Of a DNA stretch of 64,000 nt, positions 33,514 through 63,164 are shown piece by piece. The stretch lies in assembly GCF_000226095.1 (NCBI RefSeq), contig NC_016472.1, positions 1,612,001 to 1,676,000 of the forward strand. The letters are read 5' to 3'. The notes under the pieces are model-generated. The model saw nothing but the letters and a program-made list of their open reading frames with translations. It ran no database searches and was not told the DNA's origin. The first letter of the stretch is position 1. The number at the start of each line of letters is the position of its first letter. The position numbers and the translations under genes are program-made. The DNA comes from Thermothelomyces thermophilus ATCC 42464 (Eukaryota; Ascomycota; Sordariomycetes; Sordariales; Chaetomiaceae).

Positions 33514-34124
33514 ATGCCGTCTAATGTATATAGATCCCTAGTATCTATTCGTTATAAGTGTTTAGCTTAGTTTATTTCTAATTACAGGTTTATAGTAATA
33601 GCGTATTCCTATTATATAGAGTATAACTAAGTATGTAAAATGATTGAAAAATCTTATCACTACAAGGCTTACATATATTAGGGTCGTGCTTATAATAGTT
33701 CTAGCATTTTAGTTTCTTCTTATAAGTTCCCGTTTTCTTATAAAGGTATGTCTCTGATTATAACGTAGTAGATTGTATTATATGCGAGCAACGTCGTTTG
33801 AAAGCTAAAGAAAAAGAGGCCAAAGCCTTGCTACGAGAATATTAATATAAAGCTTCTAAAGCATTAGCCTATCTAACTTAGGTTCGTAAATAACAAGAGT
33901 TCCTAGTAGAGAAGGGGGCAGATATAGTTACACGGGGTCTATCAAATCTAGACAAATTAGAGGCAGTAGAATAGTAGGAATCGGAGGCTGTTATATAACT
34001 TAATAGTGGCGTTAATATTATTAACTAAGGCGCTATTTTTAGTTCTATCCTAGGTTTGCCTTTAGCTAATCCGAGTTCTACTAATAGAACTGTTCTAGTT
34101 TCTTAGAGTAGTTCAAGTTCTTAA
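33514..34124 (+). pseudogene. Antisense Zn2Cys6-like ORF of copy A (MPSN type)
   Basis: Runs opposite to gag-pol. ATG 33514, TAA 34122-34124, with a 47-bp intron at 33722-33768 (donor now ATAAGT, presumably GTAAGT before RIP; acceptor TAG). 188 codons including stop. The cysteine skeleton C-x2-C-x6-C-x8-C-x2-C-x6-C is recognisable around codons 28-60, although several Cys are now Tyr (TGT/TGC to TAT/TAC). After the intron comes a charged, probably helical stretch (EQRRLKAKEKEAKALL) and an acidic segment (SNLDKLEAVE), then an S-rich tail. About ten in-frame stops. Spacing matches fungal Zn(II)2Cys6 clusters; DNA binding is inferred only. Confidence 0.75.
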
Positions 34125-34339
34125 CTAGTTTTTATAAGTTGTCTTCTAGTCCGAAATCGAGCTATTTAACTAGATACTATAGTTCCCTATTGATGATATA
34201 TGAATCTAGAATTTTTTCGACGTCCTATTCTTTCTCCTCGTCTTCTGCTTCGATATATATAGTAGCCTTGGCGTTTTTCGGTACTAGTTCGAGAAGTGAA
34301 ATATAAAAAACATCTATCTATAGTCGTATAGATGATAGT

Positions 34340-36188
34340 AACGATAGTTAGTAGTTAGATGCCGAAATTCGTTCTTTAATAACAAAGGGTCTGACCTTTT
34401 CAAAGTCTAGCTTTGTGCTTGGTTGTTTGGTTCGTAAGTTTTGTACGATTAGGTAGACTTTGTCTTCCCTCTCTAGGCAAGGTCCCTTAAGCCTATATTT
34501 ATTATAGTAGTTCTTTATTCTAGTCTTAACAAACTCGAGTTTCTTTTTGAGCTTTTTATATAGTATGTATATTTGTTCTACTTTGACTATTGCTTTTGGC
34601 ACTATAACCTCTAGTCCTTGCCTAAGGTCTGCTTTATATCTATAGTTTGCGAAGAACGGTATAACTTTGGTCGTTTCTATTAGCGTTATATTATAAGCGA
34701 GTTATACTATTAGTAATAGTATAACCTAGTCGTCTTACTAGTAGTTAATGTAAGAATAGAGATACTGCTCGATAACTTGGTTTAGTCGCTCCGTTTATCT
34801 ATTAATCTATAGGTAATATGCCGTTAATAGCTTGCTATTAATGCCTAATTGTTATATTAACGCTTGCTAGAACTTTAATACGAACTTAGTATCTCCATTA
34901 GTGATCTATTCTTACGGCTAAGCATATACTAATGTAACTTGCCGATAGATTACGTCTACTAGCTGTTTAGCTATCTAGGATTCCTTATAGGGAAAGAAGT
35001 ATACCTATTTAGTCAGGCGATCTACTATAGTAAGGATACTATTATAGATCACTCCTATAGCCGTATCCTTAGATTCTAGTAACTTTATAATAAAGTCTAT
35101 TATAACCGAGCTCTATAGTTTGTTAGCTATTAGTAGTGGCTAAAGTAGCCTATATAGCTTATATTATACCATTTTGCTTCGATTACAAATGTCGTAGTTC
35201 TATATAACTTCCTTAACTCGTGCCGTTAACTATAGAAAGTCGTAGTGTCTCTTGACTTGTGCGATAGTCTTTGTAACTCCTTTATATCCTCCGAGTTTCG
35301 ACTCGTAGAGTTCTCGAATCATCCGTAGCTATTGATTTTTATTATAGATATACGCTTTGCCTTGGTACTAGAGTTTCCTATCTCTTTCTTCTACTCCGTT
35401 AGGTACTAATAGTCTAGGTACTACTTAATACTATGTCTTATTAATCCTTTCTTCTCGAAATTACGTAATATTCTAAGAACAAGTCAAGTAGATCATTTTC
35501 CACAGGTGTCTACATTTCGTAATATAGCGTTCCGTCTATTCGTTCCTTAAATAACGGTGGTGTTATTTCCGTTTATCCTTCTATATAATCCGTTTGTCGG
35601 CTTAAGATATCCGCTCGTACGTTCTCTTTGCTCTTCTTATAGCAGATCTTAAAGTTAAATTCCGTAAGGAATTCTACCTATCGTACTTGTCGTCCGTTAA
35701 GCTCCTTTGTCATCGTAAAGTATTATAAATTCTTATAATCTATATATATTTATACTAGTTCAATTATACTATTAAGATATAGTTACTATTCCTTAAAAGC
35801 TTTAATAATCGTAAGTAGTTCCTTATTATAGATTAGATAATTAAGATATAGTCCATCGAGCTTCTTTAAAAAGAAAGCTATAAGATATAGCTTTCCTTGT
35901 CTATCTTGTTATCCTAATTATTCTCTAATAGCGTAGTCTAAAGCGTCCGTTTCTACTTTAAATAGCTTCTTAGGGTCTAGTAGTACTAGTACTAGATCTT
36001 TAGTAATAGCGTCGTAGATTTACGTAAATGCTTGCTTATATTGCTCTTCCCATTAGAATTTAGTATTCTTCTTAGTAAGTTTATATAAAGGTCGTATAAT
36101 CAATCTAAAGTTCCTAATAAACATTCGGTAAAAGTTCGTAAATCCGATAAAGCTTTATACTTCTATAACTAACGTCAGTTAGGGCTAA
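34340..36188 (-). pseudogene. Integrase and RNase H part of copy A pol
   Basis: The C-terminal integrase segment is open at 34602-34348 (YYNKYRLKGPCLEREDKVYL and TKLDFEKVRPFVIKE). Upstream on the minus strand are the integrase core, with the IVD and T-D-R-D segments readable between stops, and RNase H near 35.6-36.0 kb. The frame is cut at 36188 by copy B and resumes with RT at 42242. Confidence 0.8.
36184..36188. repeat. Target-site duplication GCTAA, left copy (element B)
   Basis: GCTAA precedes the LTR start TGTGACA and is repeated at 42237-42241. Confidence 0.9.
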
Positions 36189-36607
36189 TGTGACAAACCC
36201 CACTCAGACTTCTTCTAAAAGGGTCCAGACGGAGGTAGGTGAAGCGGGACAAGTGTACAGGTCGTCTAAGGGATTCGGTGAAGCCAAAGGGTTTACAACA
36301 ATACTTAGAGTTATCTCTCATAGTAATTAGCAATGCTTAGTATAGGTACTATGATTGTGATTGTTACCACTAGTAAACTCCTAGAGTCTACCATAACGAG
36401 TGACTATTTACATGTATATATAATCCTAGTGATCATTCCTAATTACGGTGATCGTGAGTGATCGTATGGTGGTGATTACCCTAATCACTAGTAAGTGTAG
36501 TGATTACTATGCTTCCTATGCTGTAATTGGTCCTTTCGTTCCTTCGACTTAATTAGCCCATTTGTGCCAATAGCTTAGGCGGCATTTGTATATATATTTC
36601 TGTAATA
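36189..36607. repeat. Left LTR of copy B, type I
   Basis: 419 bp, starts TGTGACAAACC, ends CTGTAATA. Partner at 41818-42236. Confidence 0.93.
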
Positions 36608-36645
36608 CGATGCCCTCCCTCTAAGGCTTTCGACCTGAAAGCCTT
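36608..36645 (-). promoter_or_regulatory. Polypurine tract and 9-bp stem hairpin (copy B)
   Basis: Minus strand reads AGAGGGAGGGCA against the LTR. The inverted repeat AAGGCTTTC-GACCT-GAAAGCCTT (36623-36645) has a 9-bp stem, the longest of the five copies. Confidence 0.7.
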
Positions 36646-36736
36646 CTTTAGGCCGTCTTAAATAGTGCTAACATTCTTTATGTTCCTTATACGTATTTTT
36701 CTCCTTAGCCTTTTGTTACCCTTCGTACTATTAGTT

Positions 36737-37347
36737 ATACTGTCTAACGCGTATAGATCCCTAATATCTATTCGTCGTAAGCGTTTAGCTTAGTTTATTT
36801 CCGATCACGGGTTTGTAATGATGGTATATTCTTATTACGCAGAGTATAACCAAGTATATAAAATGATTGAAAAATCTCGTCGCTATAAGGCTTACATATA
36901 TTAGGGTCGTGCTTACAATGGTTCCGGCGTTCTAGTTTCTTCTTATAAGTTCCCGTTTCCTTATAAGAGCACATCTCTAATTATAACGTAGTAGATCGTA
37001 TTATACGCGAGCAACGTCGTTTAAAGGCTAAAGAGAAAGAGGCTGAGGCCTTGCTATAAGAATATCAACGCAAAGCTTCTAAGGCATTAGCCTGTCTGAC
37101 TTAGGTCTGTGAATAACGAGAGTTCCTGGTGGAGAAGGGGGCAGACATAGTTATACGAGGTTTGTCGAATCTAGACGAATTGGAGGCGGTAGAACAGTAG
37201 GAATCGGGGGCCGTTATATAGCTTAATAGTGGCGTCGACGTTATTAACTAGGGCGCTATTTTCGGTTCTGTCCTAGATTTACCTTTAGCCGATCTAGGTT
37301 CTGCTAATGGAACTGTTCCAGTTTCTTAGGGTAGTTTAAATTCTTAA
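36737..37347 (+). pseudogene. Antisense Zn2Cys6-like ORF of copy B (MPSN type)
   Basis: Same gene as in A and the same length (611 bp with a 47-bp intron at 36945-36991). The start codon is now ATA (36737-36739). Four of the six cluster cysteines read as Tyr, but their spacing is unchanged (Y-S-Y-Y ... YKMIEKSRRY ... ). Downstream EQRRLKAKEKEAEALL and GLSNLDELEAVEQ are kept, followed by a VINWGAIF-like segment with TAG for Trp. Reads away from the left LTR, about 130 bp downstream of its edge. Confidence 0.75.
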
Positions 37348-37559
37348 TAGGTTCCTATAAGTTATCTTCTAGTCCGAAATCAAGCTATTTAACTAGGTAT
37401 TATAGTTCCCTATTAATGATACGTAAATCTAGAATTTCTTTGACGTCCTATTCTTCCTCTTCGTCCTTTGCTTCGATATATATAGTAACCTTAGCGTTCT
37501 TTGGTGCTAGTTCGAGAAGTGAAATATGAAAAATATCTGTCTGTAGTCGTATAGATTAT

Positions 37560-40500
37560 GGTAACGATAGTTAGTAGTTAGATGTCGAAATTCGTTCTTT
37601 GATAACGAAGGGTCTAACCTTCTTAAAGTCTAGCTTCGTGCTTAGTCGTTTGGTTTGTAAGTTCTGTATAATTAAGTAGACTTTGTCTCCCCTCTCTAGG
37701 TAAGGTCCCTCGAGCCTGTATTTATTATAGTAATTTTTCATTCTAGTCTTGACAAACTCGAGTTCCTTTTTGAGCTTTTCATATAATGTGTACATTTGTT
37801 CTGCTTTGACTACTGCTCTTAGTACTATGACCTCTAGTCCTTGCTTAAGGTCTGCTTTATATCTATAGTTTATAAAGAATAGTATGACTTTGGTCGTTTC
37901 CGTTAGCGTCATATTATAAGCGAGTTATGCTATTGGTAATAGTATGATCTAGTCGTTTTGCTAGTAGTTGATGTAAGAGCAGAGGTACTACTTAATAACT
38001 TAGTTTAGTCACTCCGTTTGTCTGTCAGTCTGTAGGTAATATGCCATTAATAGCTTGCTATTAACGCCTAATCGTTGTATTAATACTTGCTAGAACTTTG
38101 ACGCGAACTTCGTATCTCTGTCGGTGATCCATTCTTGTGGCCAAGTATACACTAATGTAACTTGCCGATAGATTATATCTGCTAACTGTTCCGCTGTCTA
38201 GGACTCCTTGTAGGGAAAGAAGTATACCTACTTAGTCAGGCAATCTACTATAGTAAGAATACTATTATAGGTTACTTTTATAGCTATATCTTTAGATTCT
38301 AGCAGCTTTGTAATAAAGTCTATTATAACTAAACTCTATAGTTTGTTAGCTATCGGCAGTAGCTAAAGTAGCCTATATAGCTTATATTATACCGTTTTGC
38401 TCCGATTGTAGATGTTGTAGTTCTATACGACTTCCTTAACTCATACTGTCAACTATAGAAAGTCGTAATGTTTCTTGACTTATACGATAGTCTTTATGAC
38501 TCCTTTGTATCCTCCGAGTTTCGACTCGTGGAGTTCTCGAATCATCTATAGCTATTGATCTTTGTCGTAGATATACGCTTTACCTCGGTACTAGAGTTTC
38601 CTATCTCTTTCTTCCACTCCGTTAGGTATTAGTAGTCCGGGTACTACTTGATACTATGCCTCGTTGATCCTTTCTTCTCGAAAGATTACGTAGTATTCTA
38701 GGAACGAGTCAAGTAGATCATCTTCTACAAGTGTCTGTATTTCGTAATGTAGCGTTCTGTCTATTTGTTCCTTAAATAATAGTAGTATTGTTTCCGTTTG
38801 TCCTTCTATATGATCCGTTCATCGGCTTAAGATGTCTGCTTGTACGTTCTCTTTACCCTTCTTATAGCAGATCTTAAAGTTAAATTCCGTAAGGAATTCT
38901 ACCTATCGTATTTGTTATCTGTTAAGCTCCTTTGTCGTTATAAAGTATCGTAGGTTCTTATGATCTGTATATACTTGTACTAGTTTAATCGTACTACTAA
39001 GGTATAGTTACTATTCCTTAAAAGCTTTGATAATCGTAAGTAGTTCTTTGTCGTAGATCGGATAATTAAGATATAGTCTGTCAAGCTTCTTTAAAAAGAA
39101 GGCTATAGGATATAGCTTTCCTTGTCTGTCTCATTATCCTAATTGTCCTCTAATGGCGTAGTCTGAAGCGTCCATTTCTACCTTAAATAGCTTCTTAGGG
39201 TCCGGTAGTACTAGTACTAGATCTTCGGTAATAGCGTCGTAGATTTACGTAAATGCTTGCTCGTGTTACTCTTCCTATTAGAATTTAGTATTCTTCTTGG
39301 TAAGCTCGTATAAAGGTTGTACGATCGCTCTAAAGTTCCTAATAAACATCTGGTAGAAGTTCGTAAATCCGATGAAACTTCGTACTTCCGTAACTAACGT
39401 CGGTCATAGCTAATTCTTGATAGCTTTAACCTTTAAAGGTTCTATCCGGATTTGTCCTAGGGATATTTTATATCCTAAAAAGACTATCTTCCTAATATAG
39501 AACTCGCTCTTTTCCTTGTTAACTAATAGCTTATATACGTGTAGCACGTCTAGCACTACTTTTACGTACTTCCGGTGTTTATCTATTGTCTTAGAGAAGA
39601 TAAATATATTATCGAGATAATATACTATAAATTTGTCAAGAAAGGGTTAGATAGCTTGATTAATTAGGGCTTAGAACATTACTAGCGTGTTTGTAAGTCC
39701 GAATGGCATGACAAGGTACTTGTAGTAGCCATAGGGTATCCTAAAGGCCGTTTTCCACTTGTCGCCTTCTTTGATCTATATATAGTTATAGGCTAATGGT
39801 AAATCAAGACACGTGAAATATTAGGCTCCTGTTAACTAATCTCGGAGCCGTAAGATCAGTGGTAACGGGTATCGGTTTTTCATAGTCTGTTCGTTAAGTT
39901 GCCAATAGTCGATATATAACTATAGCTTTCCGTCTTTCTTAGGTATAAATAGGATTAGGTAGCCTGCTAGCAATATTGACAGGTAGATATATCCTCTTCG
40001 AAGGTTCTCCTCTAAATATTGCTTAAGTTCTTCGTTCTATGTCTAGCTTATATAGTAGATCTTAAAGAACTTTAATTATACTCCTTCCTTAAGCTTGATC
40101 TTATAATCCTATAGGCTATATTCTAGTAGTCCTTCTAGATGTTTTGGTTCGAATGCTAAGTATCCTTCGTATTCCTTCGGTACTTCCCTAGTCTTATCTC
40201 GTTTCTTAGTTTTCTAATAGTATACAAACTTGGTTCTATCTATAGCAATGCTAGCGATTTCTTCTATCTCAACCTACTACTCTAATTACAGTGCTCCACA
40301 TTCGTCAACAGAGAGAACAGCTATTGGCGGTTTAGCTCGTTCCTCCTATCGCGATATCGATATTATTATACCGCCTCTTCCAGAGTCTATAGTGGTCTGC
40401 CTGCCACTATCCGTCTCTTACGGTAGATCTGTAGGACATGCCTTCCCCTAAGTATCGTCTGCTCGTGATCCTTGCGTGCTCTCTATCTTGCTAGTCAAAT

Positions 40501-41760
40501 ATAACTCTATTTAGGGTCATAGGTAGCTACTATTCTTCTAGCTAATGTCTAGGTCGTAGTCTTTATACTATAGTAACTCTAATATTATATCTTTACTATT
40601 ACCTATATCTACGATACTAAATATGACTACTATAGTCTTCCCTACTATAGTGATATTGATCGGTTTAGTCTCCTTATATACCTATTATGTCGGAAATGGC
40701 CCTTTGACTATACCATGCTTCTGCTTTATTCTCTAGGGTATCCGTAGCTAATTTACAAGTATTAGCAAAATCAGATTTATCTCTGCTCTACTATCCACTA
40801 GTACGAGCATTTCATGCTATTTCCACTATACTATTATCTATAATTGCTTGTCTTGCCACCGTTGTCTAAAGATTGTAGCAATTTCCTATGTTTCTACTAG
40901 GAGGTCTCGATATAGTGGTCTCTTGTACTAGTCCCTCCTATACTATGCTACCACTTGCCGCTATATAGGCATTAATAGTTTCCGGGCCCCTTAAAGGGCC
41001 TTGACCTATTTCCTAGGTTAGTGCTAACCTCTTTAGTTGTTCGGCTAGTAGTGGCTTCGTCGATCGTGCTTATTTCCATGAGCTATTAAGTGCTTGCGGC
41101 TTCCTACCATTAGGTCTGTTCCGCTTTCCGTCGTACGTGCTATAGCTTTATCTAAAGCTCCCGAATTCGCAATTTCTTTTCGTCCGCGTAATAGAGGTAA
41201 TCGTTGCTCTAGCACGAGTCCTATATGTCTCGTCCGGTTCTGTAGTGCCTAGGCTAGGCTTGTCTTGGAACTATTGTAATGCCTTCTTGATTACGGGCTT
41301 CGATCTTCTAGAGCAATTCGGCTGCTTTGTTTCTTGTATCGTAGACCTATTCTACTAGGCGTAAGCTTCTATCCTCATTTCCTTGTCGGGTCGGCCAGTA
41401 ATTGTTTTCGAATTTGTCGTAGAAGTGGTATCGGCATTTATATACCATATACTAGAACTAGGGCACTTGTACATGTGCCTCGTATCAAGGGTGCAGTCAC
41501 GTGGCGTTGCCTAGGAGGTATTAGAATTCTTTCCCAAATCCTTCCCATTATACGTAGACTATAGATACTCTAGTGCTAGTATAGGAGTGTTTCTTCTAGT
41601 AGCTTTCCTACATACGTTCGTCCTTTCCGCGGTTCTCGAGTTCCTTGATTCGAGCTTAAGCAGCCTTGTCTCTCTGGTCTAACTCCTAGATCTGCTGCTA
41701 GAGTTGACCAAGCTAAGTGAGCAGCTGTTCGGCCGTAACGTTAGTAGCTATATCAATGTC
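37560..41760 (-). pseudogene. pol (and gag N-terminal remnant) of copy B
   Basis: Integrase C-terminus open at 37912-37571 (EKLKKELEFVKTRMKNYYNK, RGDKVYLI). Integrase core to about 38.5 kb, RNase H about 39.35-38.9 kb, RT about 40.2-39.4 kb with the palm now YYLDN (AAT at 39610-39608). Protease site near 40795-40787 reads DSR instead of DSG. Beyond the deletion junction at 41627-41632 only the coiled N-terminal piece of gag remains. Confidence 0.85.
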
Positions 41761-41817
41761 GAGGTCGAAGTCACCTCTATTCTAAACTATAACAGAACAA
41801 AGGGAGTAGTAACAACG

Positions 41818-42236
41818 TATAACGAACCCTACTCAGACTTCTTCTAAAAGGGTCCAGACAGAGGTAGGTAAAGCGGGACAAGTGTATAGGTCGTCTAAGG
41901 GATTCGGTGAAGCCAAAGGGTTTATAACAACACTTAGAGTTGTCTCTCATAGTAATTAGCAATGCTTGGTATAGGTACTGTGATTATGATTGTTACCACT
42001 GGTGAACTTCTAGAGTCTACTATAACGAGTGACTATTTATATGTATATATAATCCTAGTGATTATTCCTGATCACGGTGATCGTGAGTGATTGTATGGTG
42101 GTGATTACCCTGATCACTGGTAAGCGTAGTAATTACTATGCTTCCTATGCTATAATTAGTTCTTTTGTTCCTTTGACTTAATTGGCCTATTCGTGCTAGT
42201 GGCTTAGGCGGCATTTGCATGTATATTTCCGTGATA
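41818..42236. repeat. Right LTR of copy B (5' LTR by gag-pol orientation)
   Basis: 419 bp, starts TATAACGAACC (from TGTGACGAACC), ends CCGTGATA. Followed by GCTAA. Confidence 0.93.
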
Positions 42237-42241
42237 GCTAA
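42237..42241. repeat. Target-site duplication GCTAA, right copy (element B)
   Basis: Direct repeat of 36184-36188. The RT frame of copy A continues from here, matching the uninterrupted site at about 39410 in B. Confidence 0.9.
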
Positions 42242-46030: not shown

Positions 46031-46088
46031 CAAGGTCGAAGTTACCTCCGTTCTAAACTATAACAGAACAAAGGGAGTAATAGCAACG

Positions 46089-46507: not shown

Positions 46508-46512
46508 GGAGG
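46508..46512. repeat. Target-site duplication GGAGG, right copy (element A)
   Basis: Direct repeat of 32961-32965. LINE ORF2 reading frame resumes here. Confidence 0.9.
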
Positions 46513-49113: not shown

Positions 49114-49541
49114 TGTGACGAACCCAACTCAGACTTCTTCTAAAAGGGTTCAGACGAAGGTAGATTAAGCAGGACAAGCAGGCAGGTCGTCTGAGGGATT
49201 CGGTAAAGCCAAAGGGTTTATAACAACACTAGAGTTATCTCCTACAATGGTTAGTAATGCTTAGTATGAGTACCGGTAATTATAGGTTAGGTTGCTATCA
49301 CTAGTGAACTCCTAGAGTCCACCGTAACGAGTGACTATCTATATATATATATAATCCTGGGATTACTCTTTATCTAGTGATCCTTTGTCGTCTGGATCAC
49401 GGCTGCGATAGTGATCCTATAGCGTATAGATCACTTTGCCAAGCGTGATCCTTTCCTAATTAGTCCGTTCGTGCCTACTATCCTATTGGCTTGTCAGGGA
49501 AGGCAGCTTAGGCGGCGTCCTACATGTATATTTCCGTGACA
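49114..49541. repeat. Left LTR of copy C, type II
   Basis: 428 bp, TGTGACGAACC...CCGTGACA with both ends intact. The first ~200 bp resemble type I; the right half (around GTGATCCTTTGTCGTCTGG) is different. Confidence 0.93.
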
Positions 49542-49577
49542 CGATGCCCCTCCTTCAAGGCTTTCGACCTGAAAGCC
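49542..49577 (-). promoter_or_regulatory. Polypurine tract and hairpin (copy C)
   Basis: Minus strand GAAGGAGGGGCATCG abuts the LTR. Inverted repeat GGCTTTC-GACCT-GAAAGCC at 49559-49577. Confidence 0.7.
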
Positions 49578-49662
49578 CTCTTAGGCTATTTTAAATAGCG
49601 CTAACAACCCTTAGTGAGTTGTCTCCTATGTTTCTCTCTTTCTTCTATATACTGCTAATAAT

Positions 49663-50312
49663 ATGTCTTGTATAGCAAAGCGTTCGATAAAAAGGTTTGT
49701 AAAGACCGAGGAGCATATTGCCCTAGCTACTACTATTAATAAGCTAGGGTTCGAAGTAATGCCTTGTTCTTTTTGTTTTTCTTGTAGCCTCTACTACTAT
49801 ATAATAGAGAGTTCTTCTCGTTACGGCAAATGTATTTGTCGTAGGAGGTTGTACGACGGTTCTAGGGTTTTAGTCTCGTCTTGTCGGTGTTCCCTTGTTA
49901 ATATATTTTTTCTATATTAACTTCCGTAGTATCCTATATTATAGACGAATCGAAGCGCCTCGACCGGTTAGAATAAGATGCTAAAGAGGCTCTCCGTGCT
50001 AACTACGATTTATTAGTAAAAGTGTAGCATTATCTAGACAAGTCTCTAGCTTATTTAGACTACATTTGTCGTCAAAAGTAATCGTTATTATCTCGAGGGT
50101 CGGAGATGGTTCGCTAGGGTCTTACGTCTTTAGATAAATTGGAAGAGGTAGAGCAGCAGGAATCGGGGGTAGTTCTAAGTATATAGCTTAATAGTGGTAT
50201 TGATATTATTAACTAGGGCGCCGTCTTTGATTCTGTCCTAGGTTTTCCTTTAGTCAATCTAGGTTCTGCTAGTAGAACTGTTCTAGTTTCTTAGGATAGT
50301 TTAAATTCTTGA
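49663..50312 (+). pseudogene. Antisense Zn2Cys6-like ORF of copy C (MSCI type)
   Basis: ATG 49663, TGA 50310-50312, 47-bp intron at 49883-49929, 201 codons including stop. N-terminus MSCIAKRSIKRFVKTEEHIA, then a cluster beginning CSFC and ending G-K-C...RLYDGS with spacing C-x2-C-x6-C-x8-C-x2-C-x6-C (some Cys to Tyr). After the intron: IIDESKRLDRLE, EALRANYDLLVKV, LLSRGSEMVR, LDKLEEVEQQES and a short tail. Exon 1 is free of stops for 73 codons, so this first exon is the best preserved of the five. Sequence clearly differs from the A/B version while intron position, length and cluster spacing are the same. Confidence 0.78.
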
Positions 50313-50539
50313 CTAGTTCCTATAAGTTGTCCTCTAGTCTAAAATCAAGCCATTTAACTAGATATTATAGTTCCCCATTAATGATACGTAAATCTAGAAT
50401 TTCTTCGATGTCCTATTCTTCCTCTTCGTTCTCTACTTCGATGTTTGTAGCGGTCTTGGCATTCTTTGGTACTAGTTCGAGAAGTGAAATATGAAAAACA
50501 TCTGTCTATAATCGTATAGATAATAGTAACGATAGTCGG

Positions 50540-53500
50540 TAGTTAGATGTCGAGATTCGTTCCTTAATAACGAAGGGTCCGACCTTCTTAAAGTCTAGCT
50601 TTATGCTTAGTCGTTTGGTTTATAAGTTTCGTATGATTAGGTAGACTTTGTCTCCCCTCTCTAGGTAAGGTCCCTCGAGCCTATATTTGTCGTAGTAGTT
50701 CTTTATTCTGGTTTTGACAAACTTAAGTTCCTTTTTAAGCTTCTCGTATAGTGTGTATATTTGTTCTGCTTTAACTGCTGCTCTTAGCACTATAACCTCT
50801 AGTCCTTGCCTAAGGTCTACTTTATATCTATAGTTCGTAAAGAACGGTATAACTTTAGTCATTTCTATTAGCGTTATATTATAAGCAAGTTATACTATTA
50901 GTAATAGTATGACCTAGTCGTCTTGCTAGTAGTTAATATAAGAATGGAGGTACTACTTGATAACTTGGTTTAGTCACTCTGTTTATCCGTCGGTTTGTAG
51001 GTAATATGCTGTTAATAGCTTGCTATTAACGCCTAATCGTTATATTAACGCTTACTAGAACTTCGATACGAACTTGGTATCTCTATCGGTGATCTATTCC
51101 TATAGCTAAGCGTATACTAATACGACTTACTAATAGATCACGTCTACTAACTATTCTGCTGTCTAGGACTCCTTGTAGGGAAAGAAGTATACCTATTTAG
51201 TTAGGTGGTCTACTATAGTGAGAATACTATTATAGATTACCCCTATGGCCGTATCCTTAGATTCTAGCAGTTTCGTAATAAAGTCTATCGTAACTAAACT
51301 CTATAGTTTGTTGGCTATTAGTAGTGGCTAAAGTAGTCTATATAGCTTGTATCGTGCCGTTTTGCTTCGATTATGGATATTATAGTTCTATATAACTTCC
51401 TTAACTTGTATCGTTAAATCATAGAAAGTTATAGTGTTTCTTGACTTGTGCAATAGTCTTCGTAACTCCTTTATATCCTCCGAGTTTCGACTTATAGAGT
51501 CCTTAAATCATTCGTAGCTATTGATCTTTATTATAGATATACGCTTTGCCTTAGTATTAGAGTTTCCTATCTTTTTCTTCTACTCTGTTAGGTACTACTA
51601 GTCCGGGTATTGCTTAATACTATACCTTGTTAATCCTTTCTTCTTAAAAGATTACGTAACATTCTAGGAACGAGTCGAGTAGATTATCTTCTATAGGTGT
51701 CTATATTTTATAATATAGCGTTCTGTCTATTCGTTTCTTCTAAATAACGGTGGCGTTATTTCCGTTCGTTCTTCTGTATAATCCGTTCGTCAGCTTAAGG
51801 TGTCTGCTCGTATGTTCTCTTTGCCCTTCTTATAGCAGATCTTAAAATTGAATTTTACAAGAAATTCTACCTATTGTATTTGCTATCTGTTAAGCTCCTT
51901 TGTCATTATAAAGTACCGTAAATTCTTATAATCTATATATACTTATACTAGTTCGATTATACTACTAAGGTATAGTTGCCATTCCTTAAAAGCTTTGACA
52001 ATTGTAAGTAGTTCCTTATTATAGATCGGATAATTAAGACATAGTCTATCGAGCTTCTTTAAAAAGAAGACTATAGGATATAGCTTCCCTTGTTTATCTC
52101 GTTATCCTAATTGTCTTCCGATAGCGTAGTCTGAAGCGTCCGTTTCTACCTTAAATGGCTTCTTAGGGTCTGGTAGTACTAGTATTAGATCTTTAGTAAT
52201 GGCGTCACGGATCTATATAAATGCTTACTCGTATTGCTCTTCCCATTAGAATTTAGTGTTCTTCCTAGTAAGTTCGTGTAAAGGTCGTATAATCGCTCTA
52301 AAGTTCCTAATGAACATCTAGTAGAAGTTTACAAACCTGATAAAACTTTGTACTTTTGTGACTGACATCGGTCGTGGCTAATCCTTAATAGCTTCAACCT
52401 TTAAAGGTTCTATCCGGATTTGTCCTAAGGATATCTTATATCCTAAAAATACCGTCTTCCTAACGTGGAATTTGCTCTTTTCCTTGTTAACTAATAGCTT
52501 ATATACGTATAATATATCTAGTATTACTCTTATATACTTCTAGTATTTGTCTATTGTTTTAAAGAAGATAAGTATATTATCGAGATAATATACCGTAAAT
52601 TTATTAAGGAAGGATCGGATAGCTTGATTAATTAGGGCTTAGAACGTTGCTAGCGTGTTTATAAGTCTAAATGGTATGACAAGGTACTTGTAATGGCTAT
52701 AGGGTGTCCTAAAGGCCGTTTTCTACTTGTCGCCTTCCTTAATCTGTATATAGTTATAGGCCGATAGCAAGTCAAGACGTATAAAATATCAGGCTCCTGC
52801 TAACTAATCTTAGAGCTATAAGATTAGTAGTAACGGGTATCGGTTTTTTATAGTTTGTTTATTAAGTTACTAATAGTTAACGTATAACTATAGCTTTCTA
52901 TCTTTCTTAGGTATGAATAGGATTAGGTAGCCTACTAGCAATGTTAATAGGCAAATATATCCTCTTCGAAGGTTCTCCTCTAAATATTACTTAAGTTCTT
53001 CGTTCTACGTCTAGCTTGTATAGTAAATCTTAAAGAACTTTAGTTATACTCCTTCCTTAAGCTTGATCTCGTAATCCTATAGGCCGTACTCTAGTAATCC
53101 TTCTAGATACTTCGGTTCGAATGCTAGGTATTCTTTATATTCCTTTGGTACTTCCCTAGTCTTATCTTATCTCTTAGCTTTCTAATAATATATAAACTTG
53201 GTTCTATCTATAGCGATACTAGCGATTTCTCCTGTCTTAACCTACTACTCTAGTTATAGTATTCTACATTTGTTAACGGAGAGAACAGCTATTAGCGGTT
53301 TAGCTCGTTCCTCCTATCGTAACGTTGGTATCGTTATACCGCTTCTTCTAGAGTCTGTAGTAGTCTGCCTACCACTATCTGTCTCTTGCGGTGGATCTGT
53401 AGGATATGCCTTCCCTTGAGCATCGTCCGCTCGCGATCCTTGTGTGCTCCCCATCTCGCTAGTCAAATACGACTCTATTCGGGGTTATAAGTAGCTACTA

Positions 53501-56180: not shown

Positions 56181-56228
56181 ATTACCTCTGTTCTGAGCTA
56201 TAATAGAACAAAGGGAGTAATAGCAATA

Positions 56229-56656
56229 TATAACAAACCTAACTTAGACTTCTTCTAAAAGGGTTTAGATAGAGGTAAATTAAGCGTGACAAGCGTATAG
56301 GTCGTCTAAGGGATTCGGTGAAGCTAAAGGGTTTATAATAATACTAGAGTTGTCTCTTACAATGGTTAGTAATGCTTGGTATAAGTACTGGTAATTATAG
56401 GTTAGGTTGCTATCACTAGTAAACTCCTAGAGTCTACTATAACAAGTGACTATCTATATGTATATATAATCCTAGGATCACTCTTTATCTAGTGATCCTT
56501 TGTTGTCTGGATCACGGCTGCGATAGTGATCCTATAGCATATAGATTACTTTGCTAAGCGTGATCCTTTCCTGATTGGTCCGTTCGTGCCTGCTGTCCCA
56601 TTGGCTTGTTAGGGAAGGCGGCTTAGGCGGCGTCCTGTACATATATTTCCGTGACA
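56229..56656. repeat. Right LTR of copy C (5' LTR by gag-pol orientation)
   Basis: 428 bp, starts TATAACAAACC, ends CCGTGACA. Same type II as its partner. Confidence 0.93.
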
Positions 56657-57436
56657 GAAGCCCTTAAGGCTACCCCCTGCCCTACCTAGGCATAGGTAGC
56701 TATAGGGCTATAATAGAGGGTAATACGCCCCTAAGGAGGCCTACTATTAGCTAAGGTAGTACTATTATAGGCCTTATAGGAAGTTATAATATGGAATACG
56801 AGCCTATAAGAGGACCTTAAAGCCTAAACCCTGGCCGAAATAGTCTAAGTAGTTAACAGGGCTTCTAGCTACTAGGGAGCTATTATAGCTAGGAAGCTCT
56901 TAAGCAGGGATATAATAGTAGTCTTTAAGGATAAGGCTACTAAGGATTAGTATTTGGCTAATAAGCGATAGGTAGCTACAGCCTTTAGAGAGGAGGCTAG
57001 GGAGGTCGGTAGGGCCTATATAGTCCTAGCCAAGGGAGTCCGGAAGGAGGAGCTATAAGGGGTTAGCAAACAAGACTTTAAGGGAACTATAGACCTACAT
57101 TTAATCGAAACGGTCAAGTTCCGGCTGCTAAAGAGCCTATAGAGGAAGTAGGCTATAGTACTCCTAGGCTTATAGGACCTTAATAAGGCCCGGAAGGCCT
57201 ATAACAAGGGTATAGTCTAGGATACCTAGGTGCTAGACTATAAGCCTTACTAGGATACTCTAGAGCCAAGGTAGTATTATAGGTGCTAGAGCTTTAGCTA
57301 TACCTAGTGGTACTATTAGTAGCTGGCCTATTATAGCTATTATAGCATAAAGGCCTATAGGGAGGGGGGGAAGACTAAAGAGGCCTAGTACCCTACCTAC
57401 TCTAACTAATTCCCTTATAGATATATAGCCTATAGG
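56657..57436 (+). pseudogene. LINE ORF1 fragment with CCHC zinc knuckle
   Basis: Frame with RIP-type stops reading as the nucleic-acid-binding ORF1 of a fungal LINE: GVSKQDFKGTIDLHLIETVK, VLLGLQDLNKARKAYNKGIV, then at 57275-57318 a degenerate C-x2-C-x4-H-x4-C knuckle (Y-Y-R-C-.-S-F-S-Y-T-.-W-Y-Y; dots are TAG). Cut at 57436 by copy D. The order ORF2 end (left of C) then ORF1 (right of C) shows a second LINE copy starts here. Confidence 0.78.
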
Positions 57437-57887
57437 TGTGACAAACCTAACTCAGACTTCTTCTAAAAGGGTCCAGACGGAGGTAGATTAGGCGGGACAG
57501 CAGGCAGGTCGTCTAAGGGATTCGGTAAAGCCAAAGGGTTCACAATAACACTTAGAGTTGTCTCTTACAGTAATTAGCAATGCTTGGTATGAGTACTGTA
57601 ATTGTGATTATTACCACTAGTAAACTCCCAGAGTCTACCATAACGAGTGACTATTTACATGTATATATACTTCTGCCGATCGCTTATGGTCCCTTTCTAT
57701 CCTGCCCTTAGATCGCCTTTGGTAGCCAGCTATCCTCTGCTATCTTTCCCTTTTAGCAATTGTTCGCCCGTAGTAGCCCGTGCTCCCTAGCGATCCTATG
57801 TCAGCCTCGCTTCGTGCCCTTCTTGATTGGTGGCTCATTTAGCCTTCTATACCCTACCGGGTCGCGGTATATGGTTGGCTTGTGATA
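57437..57887. repeat. Left LTR of copy D, type III
   Basis: 451 bp, TGTGACAAACC...TTGTGATA. First half like types I/II; right half distinct (GATCGCTTATGG..., ...GGTCGCGGTATATGG). Confidence 0.9.
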
Positions 57888-57922
57888 CGATGCCCCCTCT
57901 TTAGGGCTTTTGACCTGAAAGC
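57888..57922 (-). promoter_or_regulatory. Polypurine tract and hairpin (copy D)
   Basis: Minus strand AAAGAGGGGGCATCG abuts the LTR. The inverted repeat around GACCT is kept but one stem base is mutated (GCTTTT/GAAAGC). Confidence 0.65.
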
Positions 57923-58003
57923 TTCTTATGACTTGTTTTAAATACTACTAATACCCCCTTTTTCTAGTAGGTAACGTCCTTCTTCTACTAACTTCCTTTC
58001 GCT

Positions 58004-58681
58004 ATAGCTGATCGTGTTCCTAGGAATCGTCGTAATCTTAAACGCGAACGACATACTATTACGATTAAGATTAAGCAAGAGGGTTACAAGGTCGCTATAC
58101 CTTGTAAGCGTTATTAGAATACGAAGCCGCGAAAGCGTTGTATGATGATAAAGGGTTTAAACAAGTGTTAAAACTATATTTATATAGGTAAGAAGTGTAG
58201 TAGTCTGAACGTTATAGATGCCTATAGGTTCCTTGTTATTTCCCTTTATAGTCCTAAGTTACTAACTCTCTTAGTCCTTTCGAATTTATCAGAGCAGGAG
58301 AAGGTTTCGAAAGAGATTACTAAGACTAAGGCGCTACTTGCTTAGACGCTAAGCCATTTAAGTCGATTACGTCGTTTATAGCAATCCCTGCGCGATCGTG
58401 GTACCGAAGTTTTTTGTCGTAGTGTAGCTCGTCTAGAAGAAGAGGAAGAACTAGATACTCCTCTGCCGATGTCGGAGATACAGACCCTCACGGGTTAGGC
58501 TTAGGTATTAGATACTTTTGACATGCTTAATTGGGAGTCGATCGGATTAGATCCTGGTCCTAATTCTAGCGGGTTCCCTTCTTTTTCTATTGGGGAATAG
58601 GCTTTAGAGCCGGTTCTTGTAGCCGGTTAGGATTCCGCCGGTAGAACTGCTCTAGCTTCTTAGGGCAATTTAGGTTCTTAA
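58004..58681 (+). pseudogene. Antisense Zn2Cys6-like ORF of copy D (MADR type)
   Basis: Start now ATA at 58004 (expected ATG), TAA at 58679-58681, 51-bp intron at 58224-58274 (donor mutated to ATAGGT, branch ACTAAC, acceptor TTAG), 209 codons including stop. Basic N-terminus (RNRRNLKRERHTITIKIK), cluster C-x2-C(Y)-x8-C-x8-C-x2-C(Y)-x6-C including KPRKRCMMIKGLNKC, then LSNLSEQEKVSKEITKTKAL, a LSRLRRLQQSLRDRG helix, an acidic LEEEEELDTP segment and a Ser/Gly tail. Only a handful of stops. Confidence 0.77.
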
Positions 58682-58869
58682 TAGGTTTCTATAAGTTATC
58701 TTCTAATCTAAAATTAAGCTATTTAACCAGATACTATAGTTCTCTATTAATAATATATAAATCTAGAATTTCTTTAACGTCCTATTCTTCTTCCTCATCT
58801 TTTACTTCGATATATATAGCAACCTTAGCGTTTTTCGGTACTGGTTCGAGAAGCAAAATATGAAAAATA

Positions 58870-61800
58870 TCCGTCCGTAGTCATATAGATAACGGTAACG
58901 ATAGTCGGTAGTTAGATGTCGAAATTCGTTCTTTGATAACGAAGGGTCTGACCTTCTTAAAGTCTAGCTTTATACTTAGTCGTTTAGTTCGTAGGTTTCG
59001 TATAATTAGGTAGACTTTGTCTCCCCTCTCTAGGCGAGGTCCCTCGAGCCTATGTTTATTGTAGTAGTTCTTCATTCTGGTTTTAACAAACTCGAGCTCC
59101 TTCTTGAGCTTCTCGTGTAGTGTATATATCTGTTCTACTTTGACTGCTGCTCTTGGCACTGTGACCTCTAGTCCTTGCCTAAGGTCTGCTTTGTATCCGT
59201 AATTCGTAAAGAATGGTGTAACTTTAGTCGTTTCTATTAGCGTCGTGTTATAAGCGAGTTATACTATTGGCAATAGCATGACCTAGTCGTTTTACTAGTA
59301 GTTGACATAAGAACGGAGATACTGCTTGACAACTTGGTTTAGTCGCTCCGTTTGTCCGTCAGTCTATAGGTAATATGCCGTTAATAGCTTACTATTGACG
59401 TCTAATCGTTACATTAACGCTTGCCAGAACTTCGATGTGAACTTGGTATCTCTGTCGGTGATCTATTCTTACGGCCAAGCATACATTAATACAACTTGCC
59501 GATAGATTACGTCTACTAACTGTTTAGCTATCTAGGACTCCTTGTAGGGAAAGAAGTATACTTACTTAGTTAGGCGATCTACTATAGTAAGAATACTATT
59601 ATAGGTTACTCCTATAGCTATATCCTTAGATTCTAGTAGCTTTATAATAAAGTCTATTATAACTAAACTCTATGGTTTGTCAGCTATTAGTAGTGGCTAA
59701 AGTAGCCTATACGGCTTATATCGTGCCGTTTTGCTTCGATTACAGATGTCGCAGTTCTATACGACTTCCTTAACTCGTACCATTAACTGTGGAAAGTCGT
59801 AGTATTTCTTAACTTATATGACAATCTTCGTAACTCCTTTGTGTCCTCTAAGTTTCGACTCGTAGAGTTCTCAAATCATCCGCAGCTATTGATCTTTGTC
59901 GTAGATATATGCTTTACCTCGGTACTAGAGTTTCCTATCTTTTTCTTCTACTCCGTTAGGTACTACTAGTCTAGGTGCTACTTAATACTATACCTTGTTA
60001 ATCCTTTCCTCTCGAAAGATTATATAGCATTCTAGGAACGAGTTAAGTAGATCATCTTCTATAGGTGTCTGCGTTTCGTGATGTAGCGTTCTGTCTGTTT
60101 ATTCCTTAAATAACGGTAGTATTATTCCTGTTCGTCCTTTTGTGTAATCCGTTCATCGACTTAAGATGTCCGCTTATATATTCTCTTTACCCTTCTTGTA
60201 GCGGATCTCGAAGTTAAATTCCGCAAGGAATTCTGCCTATCATATTTGTTATCCGTTAAGTTCCTTCGTTGTTGTAAAGTATCGTAGGTTCTTATAATCT
60301 ATATATACTTATACTAGTTTAATCATACCACTGAGGTATAGTCGCCATTCCTTAAAAGCTTCGATAATCGCAAGTAGTTCCTTGTCATAAATCGGATAAT
60401 TAAGACATGGTCTGTCGAGCTTCTTTAAAAAGAAGGCTATAGGATATAGCTTCCCTTGTTCGTCTCGTTATCCCAATTGTCCTCTAATAGCGTGGTCTAA
60501 AGCGTCCGTTTCCACCTCAAATGGCTTCTTAGGGTCTAGTAGTACTAGTACTAGATCTTTAGTAACGGCGTTACGGATCTACGTGAATGCTTGCTCGTAT
60601 CGCTCTTCCCATTGGAATTTAGCGTTCTTCTTAGTAAGTTCGTATAAGGGTCGTACGATCGCTCTAAAGTTCCTAATAAACATTTGGTAGAAGTTCGTAA
60701 ATCCGATGAAGCTTTGTACTTCTATAACTAACGTCGGTTGTAACTAATTCTTGATAGCTTTAACCTTTAAAGGTTCTATCCGAATTTGTCCGGGGGATAT
60801 TTCGTATCCTAGAAATACCGTTTTCCTAATGTGGAATTCGCTCTTTTCTTTATTAACTAATAGCTTGTACGTATATAGTGCGTCTAATACTACTGCCACG
60901 TGCTTCTAGTGTTCGTCTATCGTCTTAGAGAAGATAAGTATGTTATTGAGATAATATACCGCAAATTTGTCGAGAAAGAGTCAGATAGCTTAATTAATTA
61001 GGGCTTAGAACGTTGCCGGCGCGTTCGTAAGTCCAAATAGCATGACAAGGTACTTATAGTGGCCATAGGGTATCCTAAAGGCCGTTTTCTACTCGTTACC
61101 TTCTTTAATCTATATATAGTTGTAGGCTAATAGCAAGTCAAGATACGTAAAATATTAGGCTCCTACTAACTAATCTTAGAGCCGTGAGATCAGTGGTAAC
61201 AAGTATTAGTTTTTCATAGTCTGTTCGTTAAGTTACCAATAGTTAACATATAACCGTAGCTTTCCGTCTTTCTTAGGTATAAACAGGATTAGGTAGCCTG
61301 CTAGCGATGTCAACAGGCAGATATATCCTCTTTGAAGGTTCTCCTCTAAATATTACTTAAGTTCTTCGTTCTATGTCTAGCTTATATAGTAAATCTTAGA
61401 GAACTTTAGTCATGCTCCTTCCTTAAGCTTGATCTCGTAATCCTATAGGCTATGTTCTAGTAATCCTTCTAGATACTTTGATTCGAATGCTAGGTGTCCT
61501 TCGTATTCCTTCGGTACTTCCCTAGTCTTGTCTCGTTTCTCGGTTTTCTAATAGTATATAAACTTGGTTCTGTCTATGGCGATATTGGCGATTTCTCCTG
61601 TCTCAACCTACTACTCCGATTGTAGTGCTCCGCATTCGTCAATAGAGAGAACAGCTATCGGCGATTTAGCTTGTTCCTCTTGTCGCGATATTGATATCGT
61701 TATACCGCCTCTTCTAGAGTCTATAGTAGTCTGCCTACCACTATCTATCTCTTACGGTAGATCCGTAGGATATGCCTTTCTCTAAGTATCGTCTGCTCGC

Positions 61801-61919
61801 GATCCTTGCGCGCTCCCTATCTCGCTAGTCAAATACGACTCCGTTTAGGGTCGTAGGTAGCCACCATTCTTCTAGCTAATGTCTAGGTTGTAATCTTCAT
61901 GCCATAGTAACCCTAATAT
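58870..61919 (-). pseudogene. pol of copy D (integrase to RT)
   Basis: Integrase C-terminus open at 59159-58881 (EKLKKELEFVKTRMKNYYNK, LERGDKVYLI). Core and zinc-binding region to about 59.9 kb, RNase H near 60.2-60.6 kb, RT near 60.7-61.5 kb with palm YYLNN (60950-60942; YLDD expected). Cut at 61919 by copy E, near the start of the protease-side region. Confidence 0.85.
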
Positions 61920-62370
61920 TGTGACGAACCTAACTTAGACTTCTTCTGAAAGGGTCTAGACGGAGGCGGGCTGAGCGTGACGAGCAGGCAGGTCGTCTAA
62001 GGGATTTGGTGAAGCCAAAGGGTTTATAACAACACTAGAGTTGTCTCTCACAGTAATTAGCAATGCTTGGTATAAGTACTATGATTGTGATTGTTACCAC
62101 TGGTGAACTCCTAGAGTCCACTATAACGAGTGACTATTTACATGTATATATACTCCTCCTGATCGCTTATAGCCTTCTTCGATCCTGTCCTTGGATCGCC
62201 TTTAGTAGCTAGCTATCCTCTGCTATCTTTCCCCTTTTGGCGATTGTTTGCCTGTGATAGCCTGCGCTCCCTAGCGATCCGTGTTAGCCTCGCTTCGTGC
62301 CCTTCTTGATTGGTGGCTCATTTAGCCTGCTGTACCCCACCGGGTCGCGGTATATAGTTGGCTCGTGACA
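61920..62370. repeat. Left LTR of copy E, type III
   Basis: 451 bp, TGTGACGAACC...TCGTGACA with intact ends. Same type and length as the LTR of D. Confidence 0.92.
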
Positions 62371-62405
62371 CGATGCCCCCTCTTTAGGGCTTTCGACCTG
62401 AAAGC
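62371..62405 (-). promoter_or_regulatory. Polypurine tract and hairpin (copy E)
   Basis: Minus strand TAAAGAGGGGGCATCG abuts the LTR. Inverted repeat GCTTTC-GACCT-GAAAGC at 62389-62405. Confidence 0.68.
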
Positions 62406-62486
62406 TTCTTATGACTTGTTTCAAATACCACTAACATCCCCTTTTCTCAATAGGTAACGTCCTTCTTCCGCTAACTTCCTTTCGTT

Positions 62487-63164
62487 ATAGCTGATCGTAT
62501 TCCTAGGAATCGTCGCGATCTTAAGCGTGAACGACACGCTATTACGATCAAGATTGAGCGAGAGGGTTACAAAGTCGCTATACCTTGTGAGCATTATTAG
62601 AATACGAAGCCGCGGAAGCATTGTATGATGATAGAGGGTTTGAACAAGTGTCAAAATTGTATTTACATAGGCAAGAAGTATAGTAGTCCGAACGTCGTAG
62701 ATGCCCGTAGGTTCCTCGTAGTTTTCCTTTGTAGTCTTAGGTTACTAACTATCTTAGTCCTTTCGAATTTGTCAGAGCAAAAGAAGGTTTCAAAAGAGAT
62801 TACTAAGACCGAGGCGCTGCTTGCTTAGACGCTAAGCCGTTTAAGTCGATTACGTCGTTTACAGCAATCCCTGCGCGATCGTGGTGCCGAAGTTTTTCGT
62901 CGTGGCATAGCTCGTCTAGAGGAAGAGGAGGAACTAGATACCCCTCCGCCGATGTCGGAGACGCAGACCCTTACGGGTTAAACTTAGGCGTTAGGCGCTT
63001 TCGACGTGCTTGATTAGGAGTCGATCGGGTTAGATCCCGGTCCTAATTCTGGCGGGTTCCCCTCTTTTTCTATTGGGGAATGGGCTTTGGAGCTAGTTCT
63101 TGTAGCTAGTTAGGATTCTGCTAGTGGAACTGCTCTAGTTTCTTAGGGCAATTTAGGTTCTTAA
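62487..63164 (+). pseudogene. Antisense Zn2Cys6-like ORF of copy E (MADR type), least decayed after the first exon of C
   Basis: Start ATA at 62487 (from ATG), TAA 63162-63164, 51-bp intron 62707-62757 with an intact GTAGGT donor, ACTAAC branch and TTAG acceptor. 209 codons including stop, identical in length to D. Cluster reads C-E-H-Y...HCMMIEGLNKCQNCIYIGKKY, giving C-x2-C-x8-C-x8-C-x2-C-x6-C with two Cys to Tyr. Then LSNLSEQKKVSKEITKTEAL, RLEEEEELDTPPP and GLDPGPNSGGFPSFSIGEW. About six in-frame stops. This copy gives the clearest view of the intron. Confidence 0.8.

What the first reader, a model, noticed from the sequence alone, without database searches (positions are those of the whole stretch)
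33514..63164. Antisense Zn(II)2Cys6-like gene conserved in five gypsy-family copies
Seen: in all five copies a plus-strand gene lies between the integrase end and the left LTR (33514-34124, 36737-37347, 49663-50312, 58004-58681, 62487-63164). Each closes in frame only when one phase-1 intron is removed (47, 47, 47, 51 and 51 bp), giving 187, 187, 200, 208 and 208 residues. Cys (or Tyr from TGY-to-TAY) positions follow C-x2-C-x6/8-C-x8-C-x2-C-x6-C, then a charged helical region. Known: fungal Zn(II)2Cys6 regulators use C-x2-C-x6-C-x5-12-C-x2-C-x6-8-C. Inference: the element family carries an antisense, spliced, DNA-binding-type accessory protein.
Basis: partly seen in the sequence, partly recalled or inferred. 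Interest (0 to 1): 0.88.

Follow-up and report, generated by a model that had tools for sequence, protein, structure and literature searches.

The report
Antisense regulator cassette in fungal retrotransposons
Jumping genes in a heat-loving mould carry, on their back strand, a spliced gene for a small zinc-cluster-like protein, and this gene is swapped together with the element's own promoter as one unit, which suggests that the protein controls the element that carries it.

Summary
All five gypsy copies carry the plus-strand gene, but every copy is dead: 7-11 in-frame stops each, start codon lost in three of five, mostly RIP-type changes in the three copies compared. The 51-nt intron of copies 4-5 is not needed to keep frame. 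Elsewhere in the host genome (names point to Thermothelomyces thermophilus) the gene is stop-free in 18 of 18 open-pol copies of a young family and in 15 copies of a second, intronless one. Relatives occur in many ascomycetes. The protein has C-x2-C-x6-C-x8-C-x2-C-x6-C, a heptad region and purifying selection, but stays below Pfam's Zn_clus cut-off. An antisense gene there, brtn, was described in 2011.

New here: element families with near-identical gag-pol differ sharply in the antisense gene and the U3 half of the LTR. Gene type matches U3 type in 66 of 72 loci. Three of six U3 types carry clearly iterated motifs, e.g. GGATCAC every 17 bp on alternating strands. I read this as an exchangeable regulator-plus-operator cassette. 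Binding and expression are untested.

The parts
33514..34124 (+). antisense gene remnant c1 (type C): exon 1 33514-33721, intron 33722-33768 (47 nt, donor reads AT), exon 2 33769-34124; 11 internal stops
   Evidence: tblastn to family members
36737..37347 (+). antisense gene remnant c2 (type C): exon 1 36737-36944, intron 36945-36991 (47 nt, donor reads AT), exon 2 36992-37347; start codon reads ATA; 9 internal stops
49663..50312 (+). antisense gene remnant c3 (type A): exon 1 49663-49882, intron 49883-49929 (47 nt), exon 2 49930-50312; 7 internal stops
   Evidence: R/Y identity 0.99 to type-A copy L036
58004..58681 (+). antisense gene remnant c4 (type B): exon 1 58004-58223, in-frame intron 58224-58274 (51 nt, donor reads AT), exon 2 58275-58681; start reads ATA; 9 internal stops
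62487..63164 (+). antisense gene remnant c5 (type B): exon 1 62487-62706, in-frame intron 62707-62757 (51 nt, GTAGGT...ACTAAC...TTAG), exon 2 62758-63164; start reads ATA; 7 internal stops
   Evidence: the database model P0002 lacks the intron stretch
33402..33420 (.). inverted repeat GGCTTTCGACCTGAAAGCC between 3' LTR and c1
36625..36643 (.). same inverted repeat beside c2
49559..49577 (.). same inverted repeat beside c3
57905..57923 (.). same inverted repeat (diverged) beside c4
62388..62406 (.). same inverted repeat (diverged) beside c5
32966..33384 (-). 3' LTR beside c1; the U3 half lies at the high-coordinate end
   Evidence: self-alignment; end placed from the TGTCACG junction
36189..36607 (-). 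3' LTR beside c2
49114..49541 (-). 3' LTR beside c3; type-A GATCAC array in U3 at about 49360-49451 (sites 17 bp apart in better-preserved type-A copies)
57437..57887 (-). 3' LTR beside c4 (type-B U3)
61920..62370 (-). 3' LTR beside c5 (type-B U3, GCGATC sites)
34003..35800 (-). integrase/pol 3' part of the element carrying c1
   Evidence: tblastn 66-67% to young-family pol
37226..39025 (-). integrase/pol 3' part, element of c2
   Evidence: 72%
50191..51993 (-). integrase/pol 3' part, element of c3
   Evidence: 60-71%
58614..60359 (-). integrase/pol 3' part, element of c4
   Evidence: 77%
63046..63999 (-). integrase/pol 3' end, element of c5 (cut by the window end)
   Evidence: 79%

Best explanation
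These are RIP-killed chromodomain Ty3/gypsy elements. Their intact relatives carry, antisense between pol and the 3' LTR, a short (mostly spliced) gene for a Zn(II)2Cys6-like protein of about 200 residues with a heptad-like region. Shown by sequence: the gene is real, old, under protein-level constraint and stop-free in the young families. Shown: gene and U3 promoter half change together as one cassette on an otherwise near-identical element. Inferred: the protein is an element-encoded DNA-binding regulator. It would dimerise through the helix, bind the iterated motifs in the U3 of its own type, and so control the sense promoter in the 5' LTR (gag-pol) and the antisense promoter in or near the 3' LTR (itself). 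The sign of the control (repression as copy-number control, or activation) is unknown; I lean to negative autoregulation.
For: Gene: both exons stop-free over the matched parts in 18 Y places, one beside each of the 18 places with an open 1264-aa pol; 15 Z copies 100% identical without stops. Constraint: omega 0.16, 0.17, 0.34 and 0.46 in four between-type comparisons. Splicing: nine offsets in all three frames among those 18 Y copies; GT-AG introns in Y and A; intronless homologue in Z. Protein: six-Cys pattern in 30 of 32; heptad periodicity p<0.05, uncorrected, in 25 of 30; a profile of 20 host Zn_clus domains gives >8 bits to 14 of 29 members against 1-7 of 29 in 20 Cys-preserving shuffles. 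Cassette: Y and Z pol 98.3% aa identical with dS 0.118 over 400 codons, against antisense proteins 28.6% identical with dS about 1.4; identity falls at the pol tip and returns at 97-98% in the second half of the LTR; 5' part 96.5% over 2596 nt excluding U3. Linkage: 66 of 72 loci have matching gene and U3 type. Motifs: GGATCAC five exact plus one near copy every 17 bp on alternating strands in type A; GATCGCA x5 in Z; GATCAC x6 in C.
Against: Pfam Zn_clus stays below its cut-off, and in five of the ten members the only Zn_clus match is out of register (profile 16-38 on Cys 1-3). The 88 Zn_clus places listed for this genome include none of the Y or Z antisense genes. Gene and U3 are neighbours, so linkage alone could arise from one exchanged tract without functional pairing. 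Motif iteration is weak or absent in B (7-mers p=0.875; GATC p=0.020), Y (6-mers p=0.19; 7-mers p=0.019; no GATC) and F (6-mers p=0.048; 7-mers p=0.075), uncorrected. Some U3 pairs (Y/Z and A/C, R/Y identity 0.81) are more alike than shuffled controls (0.65-0.74), so not all U3s are unrelated. Y's TGATAA looks like a host GATA-factor site (recalled). One of 72 loci (L079) has a Y gene with a non-Y U3. No CGG enrichment.
Confidence: 0.5

Rival explanations
1. Accessory protein without promoter control: the antisense protein binds nucleic acid or chromatin to help nuclear entry or target integration. U3 differs only because the exchanged tract happens to end at the U3/R boundary, where reverse-transcription strand transfer occurs.
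For: Strand transfer at R gives a mechanical reason for a breakpoint at U3/R (established retroviral biology, recalled). The elements have a C-terminal chromodomain, so targeting biology is present.
Against: It does not explain the significant type-specific motif arrays in types A, C and Z, nor why the rest of the element stays near-identical while this tract is old.
Confidence: 0.22
2. The antisense transcript, not the protein, matters: it makes double-stranded RNA with gag-pol RNA and feeds silencing. The reading frame is a by-product.
For: Antisense transcription as a dsRNA source is proposed for plant elements (PMC7264820, passages).
Against: Omega 0.16 in the antisense frame against 0.35-1.37 in the other five frames (Y against A); stop-free frames in 18 Y and 15 Z copies; Cys pattern conserved in database relatives. 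The overlap with pol is only about 125-190 nt.
Confidence: 0.07
3. The U3 arrays are sites for host transcription factors. Cassette types are different host-regulatory niches, and the antisense gene merely hitchhikes.
For: CCAAT-like boxes and TATATA stretches occur in most of the U3s printed, so host factors probably act there; Y's TGATAA resembles GATA sites (recalled).
Against: The 66-of-72 linkage, together with the gene's own divergence between types at low omega, is not explained by hitchhiking alone.
Confidence: 0.18
4. Artefact: antisense frame conserved only because of pol or because copies share recent ancestry.
For: The 3' end of the gene overlaps the end of pol.
Against: Omega was computed outside the overlap; 76 proteins at E<=0.01 came from databases, with named hits in fourteen or so fungal species.
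Confidence: 0.02

Closest known systems
brtn of Boty-like elements, Botrytis cinerea (Zhao et al. 2011, Virology 417:248)
   Same: Fungal gypsy-type element with an extra antisense gene; its gag-pol has gag, ZnF_C2HC, RT, IN and CHROMO domains (PMC4227169, passages); PMC7264820 (passages) places the gene between pol and the 3' LTR, function unknown.
   Different: The BRTN sequence and the 2011 paper were not available (known by title), so homology is untested; no zinc cluster, intron or U3 coupling was mentioned in the passages seen.
Antisense ORFs of plant LTR retrotransposons (Grande, RIRE2, Retand TRP28/PF04195)
   Same: Same place and orientation; TRP28 predicted DNA-binding, regulatory role proposed (PMC11963269, passages).
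   Different: Different protein domain; the Retand lineage is non-chromovirus; no gene-U3 cassette exchange in the passages seen.
HBZ of HTLV-1
   Same: Antisense gene started from the 3' LTR, coding for a bZIP protein (start of abstracts of PMC3185765 and PMC10186651 in the listing); splicing and action on the viral promoter recalled.
   Different: bZIP rather than zinc cluster; unrelated virus; works-like only.
Fungal Zn(II)2Cys6 (Gal4-type) regulators
   Same: Six-Cys spacing, then linker and a heptad region; dimers bind spaced half-sites (PMC6080790, passages; Gal4's 17-bp site recalled).
   Different: Below the Zn_clus cut-off, no middle homology region found by Pfam in the members scanned, about 200 aa, no match to the usual basic first loop (recalled).
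Immunity regions of lambdoid phages (recalled)
   Same: Regulator gene and its operators exchanged as one module between otherwise similar elements.
   Different: A retrotransposon, a eukaryotic host, and regulation not yet shown.

Membership tests
Zn(II)2Cys6 binuclear cluster (PF00172) | six Cys, C-x2-C-x6-C-x5-12-C-x2-C-x6-8-C | tested here: met
   30 of 32 sequences match a somewhat wider six-Cys pattern; 22 of these 30 have exactly 2-6-8-2-6; the others reach x7 in the first loop, x14 in the middle and x8 in the last
Zn(II)2Cys6 binuclear cluster (PF00172) | Pfam gathering score of 21 bits | tested here: not met
   bits seen: 20.0 (P0062), 17.0, 16.8, 15.5, 12.4, 11.4, 8.7; 15 of 21 A2 members at E<=1, best E 0.0011, bits printed only for P0001; none of the 88 places listed in the genome is a Y or Z antisense gene
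Zn(II)2Cys6 binuclear cluster (PF00172) | profile similarity beyond the Cys spacing | tested here: inconclusive
   14 of 29 over 8 bits against 1-7 of 29 in 20 Cys-fixed shuffles, best 21.8 against 20.1; hhalign probability 65.7%, all six Cys in register
Zn(II)2Cys6 binuclear cluster (PF00172) | binds two zinc ions and DNA | not testable with these tools
   needs protein
Ty3/gypsy chromovirus | gag, PR-RT-RH-IN order, C-terminal chromodomain, LTRs | tested here: met
   Retrotrans_gag, zf-CCHC, Asp_protease_2, RVT_1, RT_RNaseH, Integrase_H2C2, rve, SH3_Tf2-1, Chromo in L031 (rve 31.5 bits, just under its 32.6 cut-off); LTRs of 448-451 bp 99.8-100% identical in L031-L034
antisense aORF between pol and 3' LTR (brtn-type) | antisense gene between pol and 3' LTR | tested here: met
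   40 of 40 fetched hairpin-marked loci have both the gene and an opposed integrase; the 40 were chosen by the hairpin, and in L070 the gene match lies further off
brtn (as a homologue) | sequence homology to BRTN | not tested
   BRTN sequence not in hand; no hit listed bears that name

The most novel reading that the evidence does not exclude
A heteroimmunity-like system in a retrotransposon: each cassette pairs a type-specific antisense zinc-cluster protein with a U3 array that only this protein reads. Resident copies then repress incoming copies of the same type, and a lineage escapes by taking a different cassette through template switching at the 3' end of its RNA, which keeps about six cassette types on one gag-pol backbone.
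Probability: 0.3. Interest if true: 0.9.

Novelty: new variant of a known kind. Interest (0 to 1): 0.75.

Why it matters
Antisense genes between pol and the 3' LTR are known in fungi and plants, but their function is called unknown in the papers whose passages I saw. The mosaic found here gives each gene a concrete candidate target, the U3 of its own type, and a built-in specificity control, the U3 of another type. A plain binding assay can therefore test a long-standing question. If right, LTR retrotransposons would have modular self-recognition comparable to phage immunity.

Tried and rejected
Rejected: conservation as a by-product of pol (omega outside the overlap); random frame. The 19-bp inverted repeat was first considered as the protein's operator. 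It is nearly constant across the types A, B, C and Y and has a compensated base change and a longer loop in Z, so I now think it more likely a cis element at the polypurine tract; undecided. CGG triplets in U3: no enrichment. Centromere/CBF3 link from a weak PDB hit (E 6, E 2): dropped.

Led nowhere: viral contigs (one search gave six pattern hits, none with the gene), genome contigs; NCBIfam (no meaningful match among 5 proteins); locus L090, fetched as a possible element without the gene, is not an LTR element, so no gene-free gypsy family was available as a control. Papers on a zinc cluster in such elements: the listings showed none that I recognised. One search covered one strand only, so its counts of exact matches are too low: the rows with three or more mismatches are mostly the reverse complement of the repeat.

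Dropped before counts: one search tried 85 stretches, oriented 82, and typed 72 after identical blocks were removed; two of the 72 (L061 and c2) supplied the B and C references and match themselves by construction; no Z locus is among the 72. Searches fetched 40 of 348 hairpin sites, all on C1 up to 7.4 Mb, leaving out in that stretch the window's own four and C1:5068061, 6678660, 7035130, 7144934 and 7148665. One search used 30 of the 76 relatives plus Y and Z. One search used 20 of the 88 host Zn_clus places, mostly from the top of the list. The 28 loci of the type-A site count are not all distinct copies.

Full report
WHAT IS THERE. The window lies in G000 contig C1:1612001-1676000, a genome of 38,744,216 bases in 7 contigs. 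Database proteins nearly identical to genes in it bear MYCTH names of Thermothelomyces thermophilus ATCC 42464 (P0002, P0003 and P0012), so this is the likely host (inference). From about 26 kb on, the window is a nest of minus-strand LTR elements with strong RIP signs: TA/AT 1.61 and (CA+TG)/(AC+GT) 0.54, against 0.65 and 1.19 in bases 1-25000. The changes that separate c3, c5 and c4 from better-preserved relatives are C>T or G>A in 128 of 146, 62 of 88 and 93 of 116 cases (c1 and c2 were not compared).

THE FIVE COPIES. All five carry the plus-strand gene where stated, between the 3' LTR and the end of a minus-strand integrase. All five are dead: 11, 9, 7, 9 and 7 internal stops; first codon ATA in c2, c4 and c5. 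The introns are phase 1 and sit at a similar place.

THE CASSETTE. Y and Z are 93-100% identical per 100 nt through pol to about L031:6870. Identity then falls to 40-61% across the antisense gene, rises to 75% at the hairpin/polypurine block, falls to about 50% over the first 230 bp of the LTR (U3), and returns to 97-98% in the rest of the LTR. The 5' part, from LTR position about 230 through gag, is 96.5% over 2596 nt. In codons: dS 0.118 in 400 pol codons against about 1.4 in the antisense gene. Measured blind to RIP transitions, the pol body is 1.00 (two decimals) in all 15 pairs tried; in the nine pairs between types the block of pol tip plus antisense gene is 0.73-0.84 and U3 0.67-0.77; in the six pairs within types both are 0.99-1.00. 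In one search the type references give 0.67-0.79 (gene) and 0.69-0.81 (U3) against each other, and shuffled sequences 0.64-0.73 and 0.65-0.74, so several pairs are at the null and some (Y/Z and A/C U3) above it. Typing 72 distinct loci (85 tried, 82 oriented): gene and U3 of the same type in 66 (A 25, C 18, B 14, Y 9); 4 are outside the five reference types in both (L053, L057, L069, L073; two of them shown as F); L070 has an A-type U3 and an untypable gene block; L079 has a Y gene with a non-Y U3.

MOTIFS IN U3. Upstream of a TATA-like stretch and downstream of CCAAT-like boxes: type A has GGATCAC at 91+, 108-, 125+, 142-, 159+ and a near copy at 176-, exactly 17 bp apart on alternating strands. 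The GATC cores stand at 92, 110, 126, 144, 160 and 178 in 14 of 28 loci from the type-A search (not all distinct); the nine further loci shown lack one or two of them. Z has GATCGCA five times, C has GATCAC six times, F GGATCAC three times, Y GGTGATAA three times, B GCGATC twice in 200 nt (four GATC in 220 nt). Against 1000 dinucleotide shuffles the most frequent 7-mer has p below 0.001 in A, C and Z, 0.019 in Y, 0.075 in F and 0.875 in B; GATC counts have p 0.001 or less in A, C, Z and F, 0.020 in B and 1.0 in Y (uncorrected; C and F were read from RIP-damaged copies). GATC is not dense in gag-pol (1.15-1.17 per 200 nt), R-U5 or the gene.

HOW IT MOST LIKELY WORKS (inference). In the 3' LTR the U3 array lies upstream of the antisense gene; in the 5' LTR the same array lies upstream of the TATA-like stretch for gag-pol. 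A dimeric protein from the antisense gene that binds its own array would regulate both. U3 is present only at the 3' end of the element's RNA, next to the antisense gene, so one template switch carries both to a new backbone and, through reverse transcription, to both LTRs (established retrotransposon biology, recalled). This explains why gene and U3 travel together, but it is also why linkage alone does not prove pairing; the type-specific arrays are the extra evidence, clear in three of six types.

KNOWN AND NEW. An antisense gene at this place is known from Boty (brtn; title of the 2011 paper, and passages of PMC8365987, PMC7264820, PMC4227169, PMC5987419) and from plant elements (PMC11963269, passages). 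HBZ is the nearest functional analogue (start of abstracts in a listing). The listings of searches, in an open-licence library, showed no paper that I recognised as describing the zinc-cluster-like domain or the gene-U3 cassette; subscription papers, among them Zhao 2011, could not be read.

LIMITS. One genome only; no DNA of other fungi was reached; no expression, binding or structural data; no gypsy family without the gene was examined as a control; the 40 hairpin loci were chosen by the hairpin itself. The gene-ascertained set (33 distinct blocks) also shows the repeat on one strand or the other with at most a few changes, by my reading of its rows.

Noticed in passing
window 33402, 36625, 49559, 57905, 62388; L031:7663; L088:2074: A 19-bp inverted repeat (GGCTTTCGACCCGAAAGCC) beside the polypurine tract, just inside the 3' LTR; 348 matches to the 18-base pattern GGCTTTCGNCCNGAAAGC in the genome against 0 for the reversed control. 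Z has GTCTTTCG-N4-CGAAAGAC, a compensated base change and a longer loop.
   Followed up: partly
L079: A locus with a Y-type antisense gene but a non-Y U3, possibly a recombinant inside the cassette.
   Followed up: no
L053, L057, L069, L073: Four loci outside the five reference types in gene and U3, so at least one further cassette type (F); the U3s are nearest to A, with GGATCAC sites in L053 and L057. That the four are one type was not checked.
   Followed up: partly
L031-L034, intron of the antisense gene: Poly-T run of variable length: 18 near-identical copies show nine exon-to-exon offsets, a possible age or slippage marker.
   Followed up: partly
L090 (G000:C5:1262600-1266600): A 776-residue open frame with an Integrase_H2C2 match and no sign of this element family, beside a chaperonin-like frame (recalled likeness), possibly a domesticated integrase gene.
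   Followed up: no
P0003, P0071; PF12511 (DUF3716): P0003 matches DUF3716 below its cut-off (15.7 against 22 bits) and P0071 at 10.5; DUF3716 may be a related cluster.
   Followed up: no
P0028, P0048: Relatives of this protein carry unrelated automatic names in public sources (MlaD transporter subunit, death domain).
   Followed up: no
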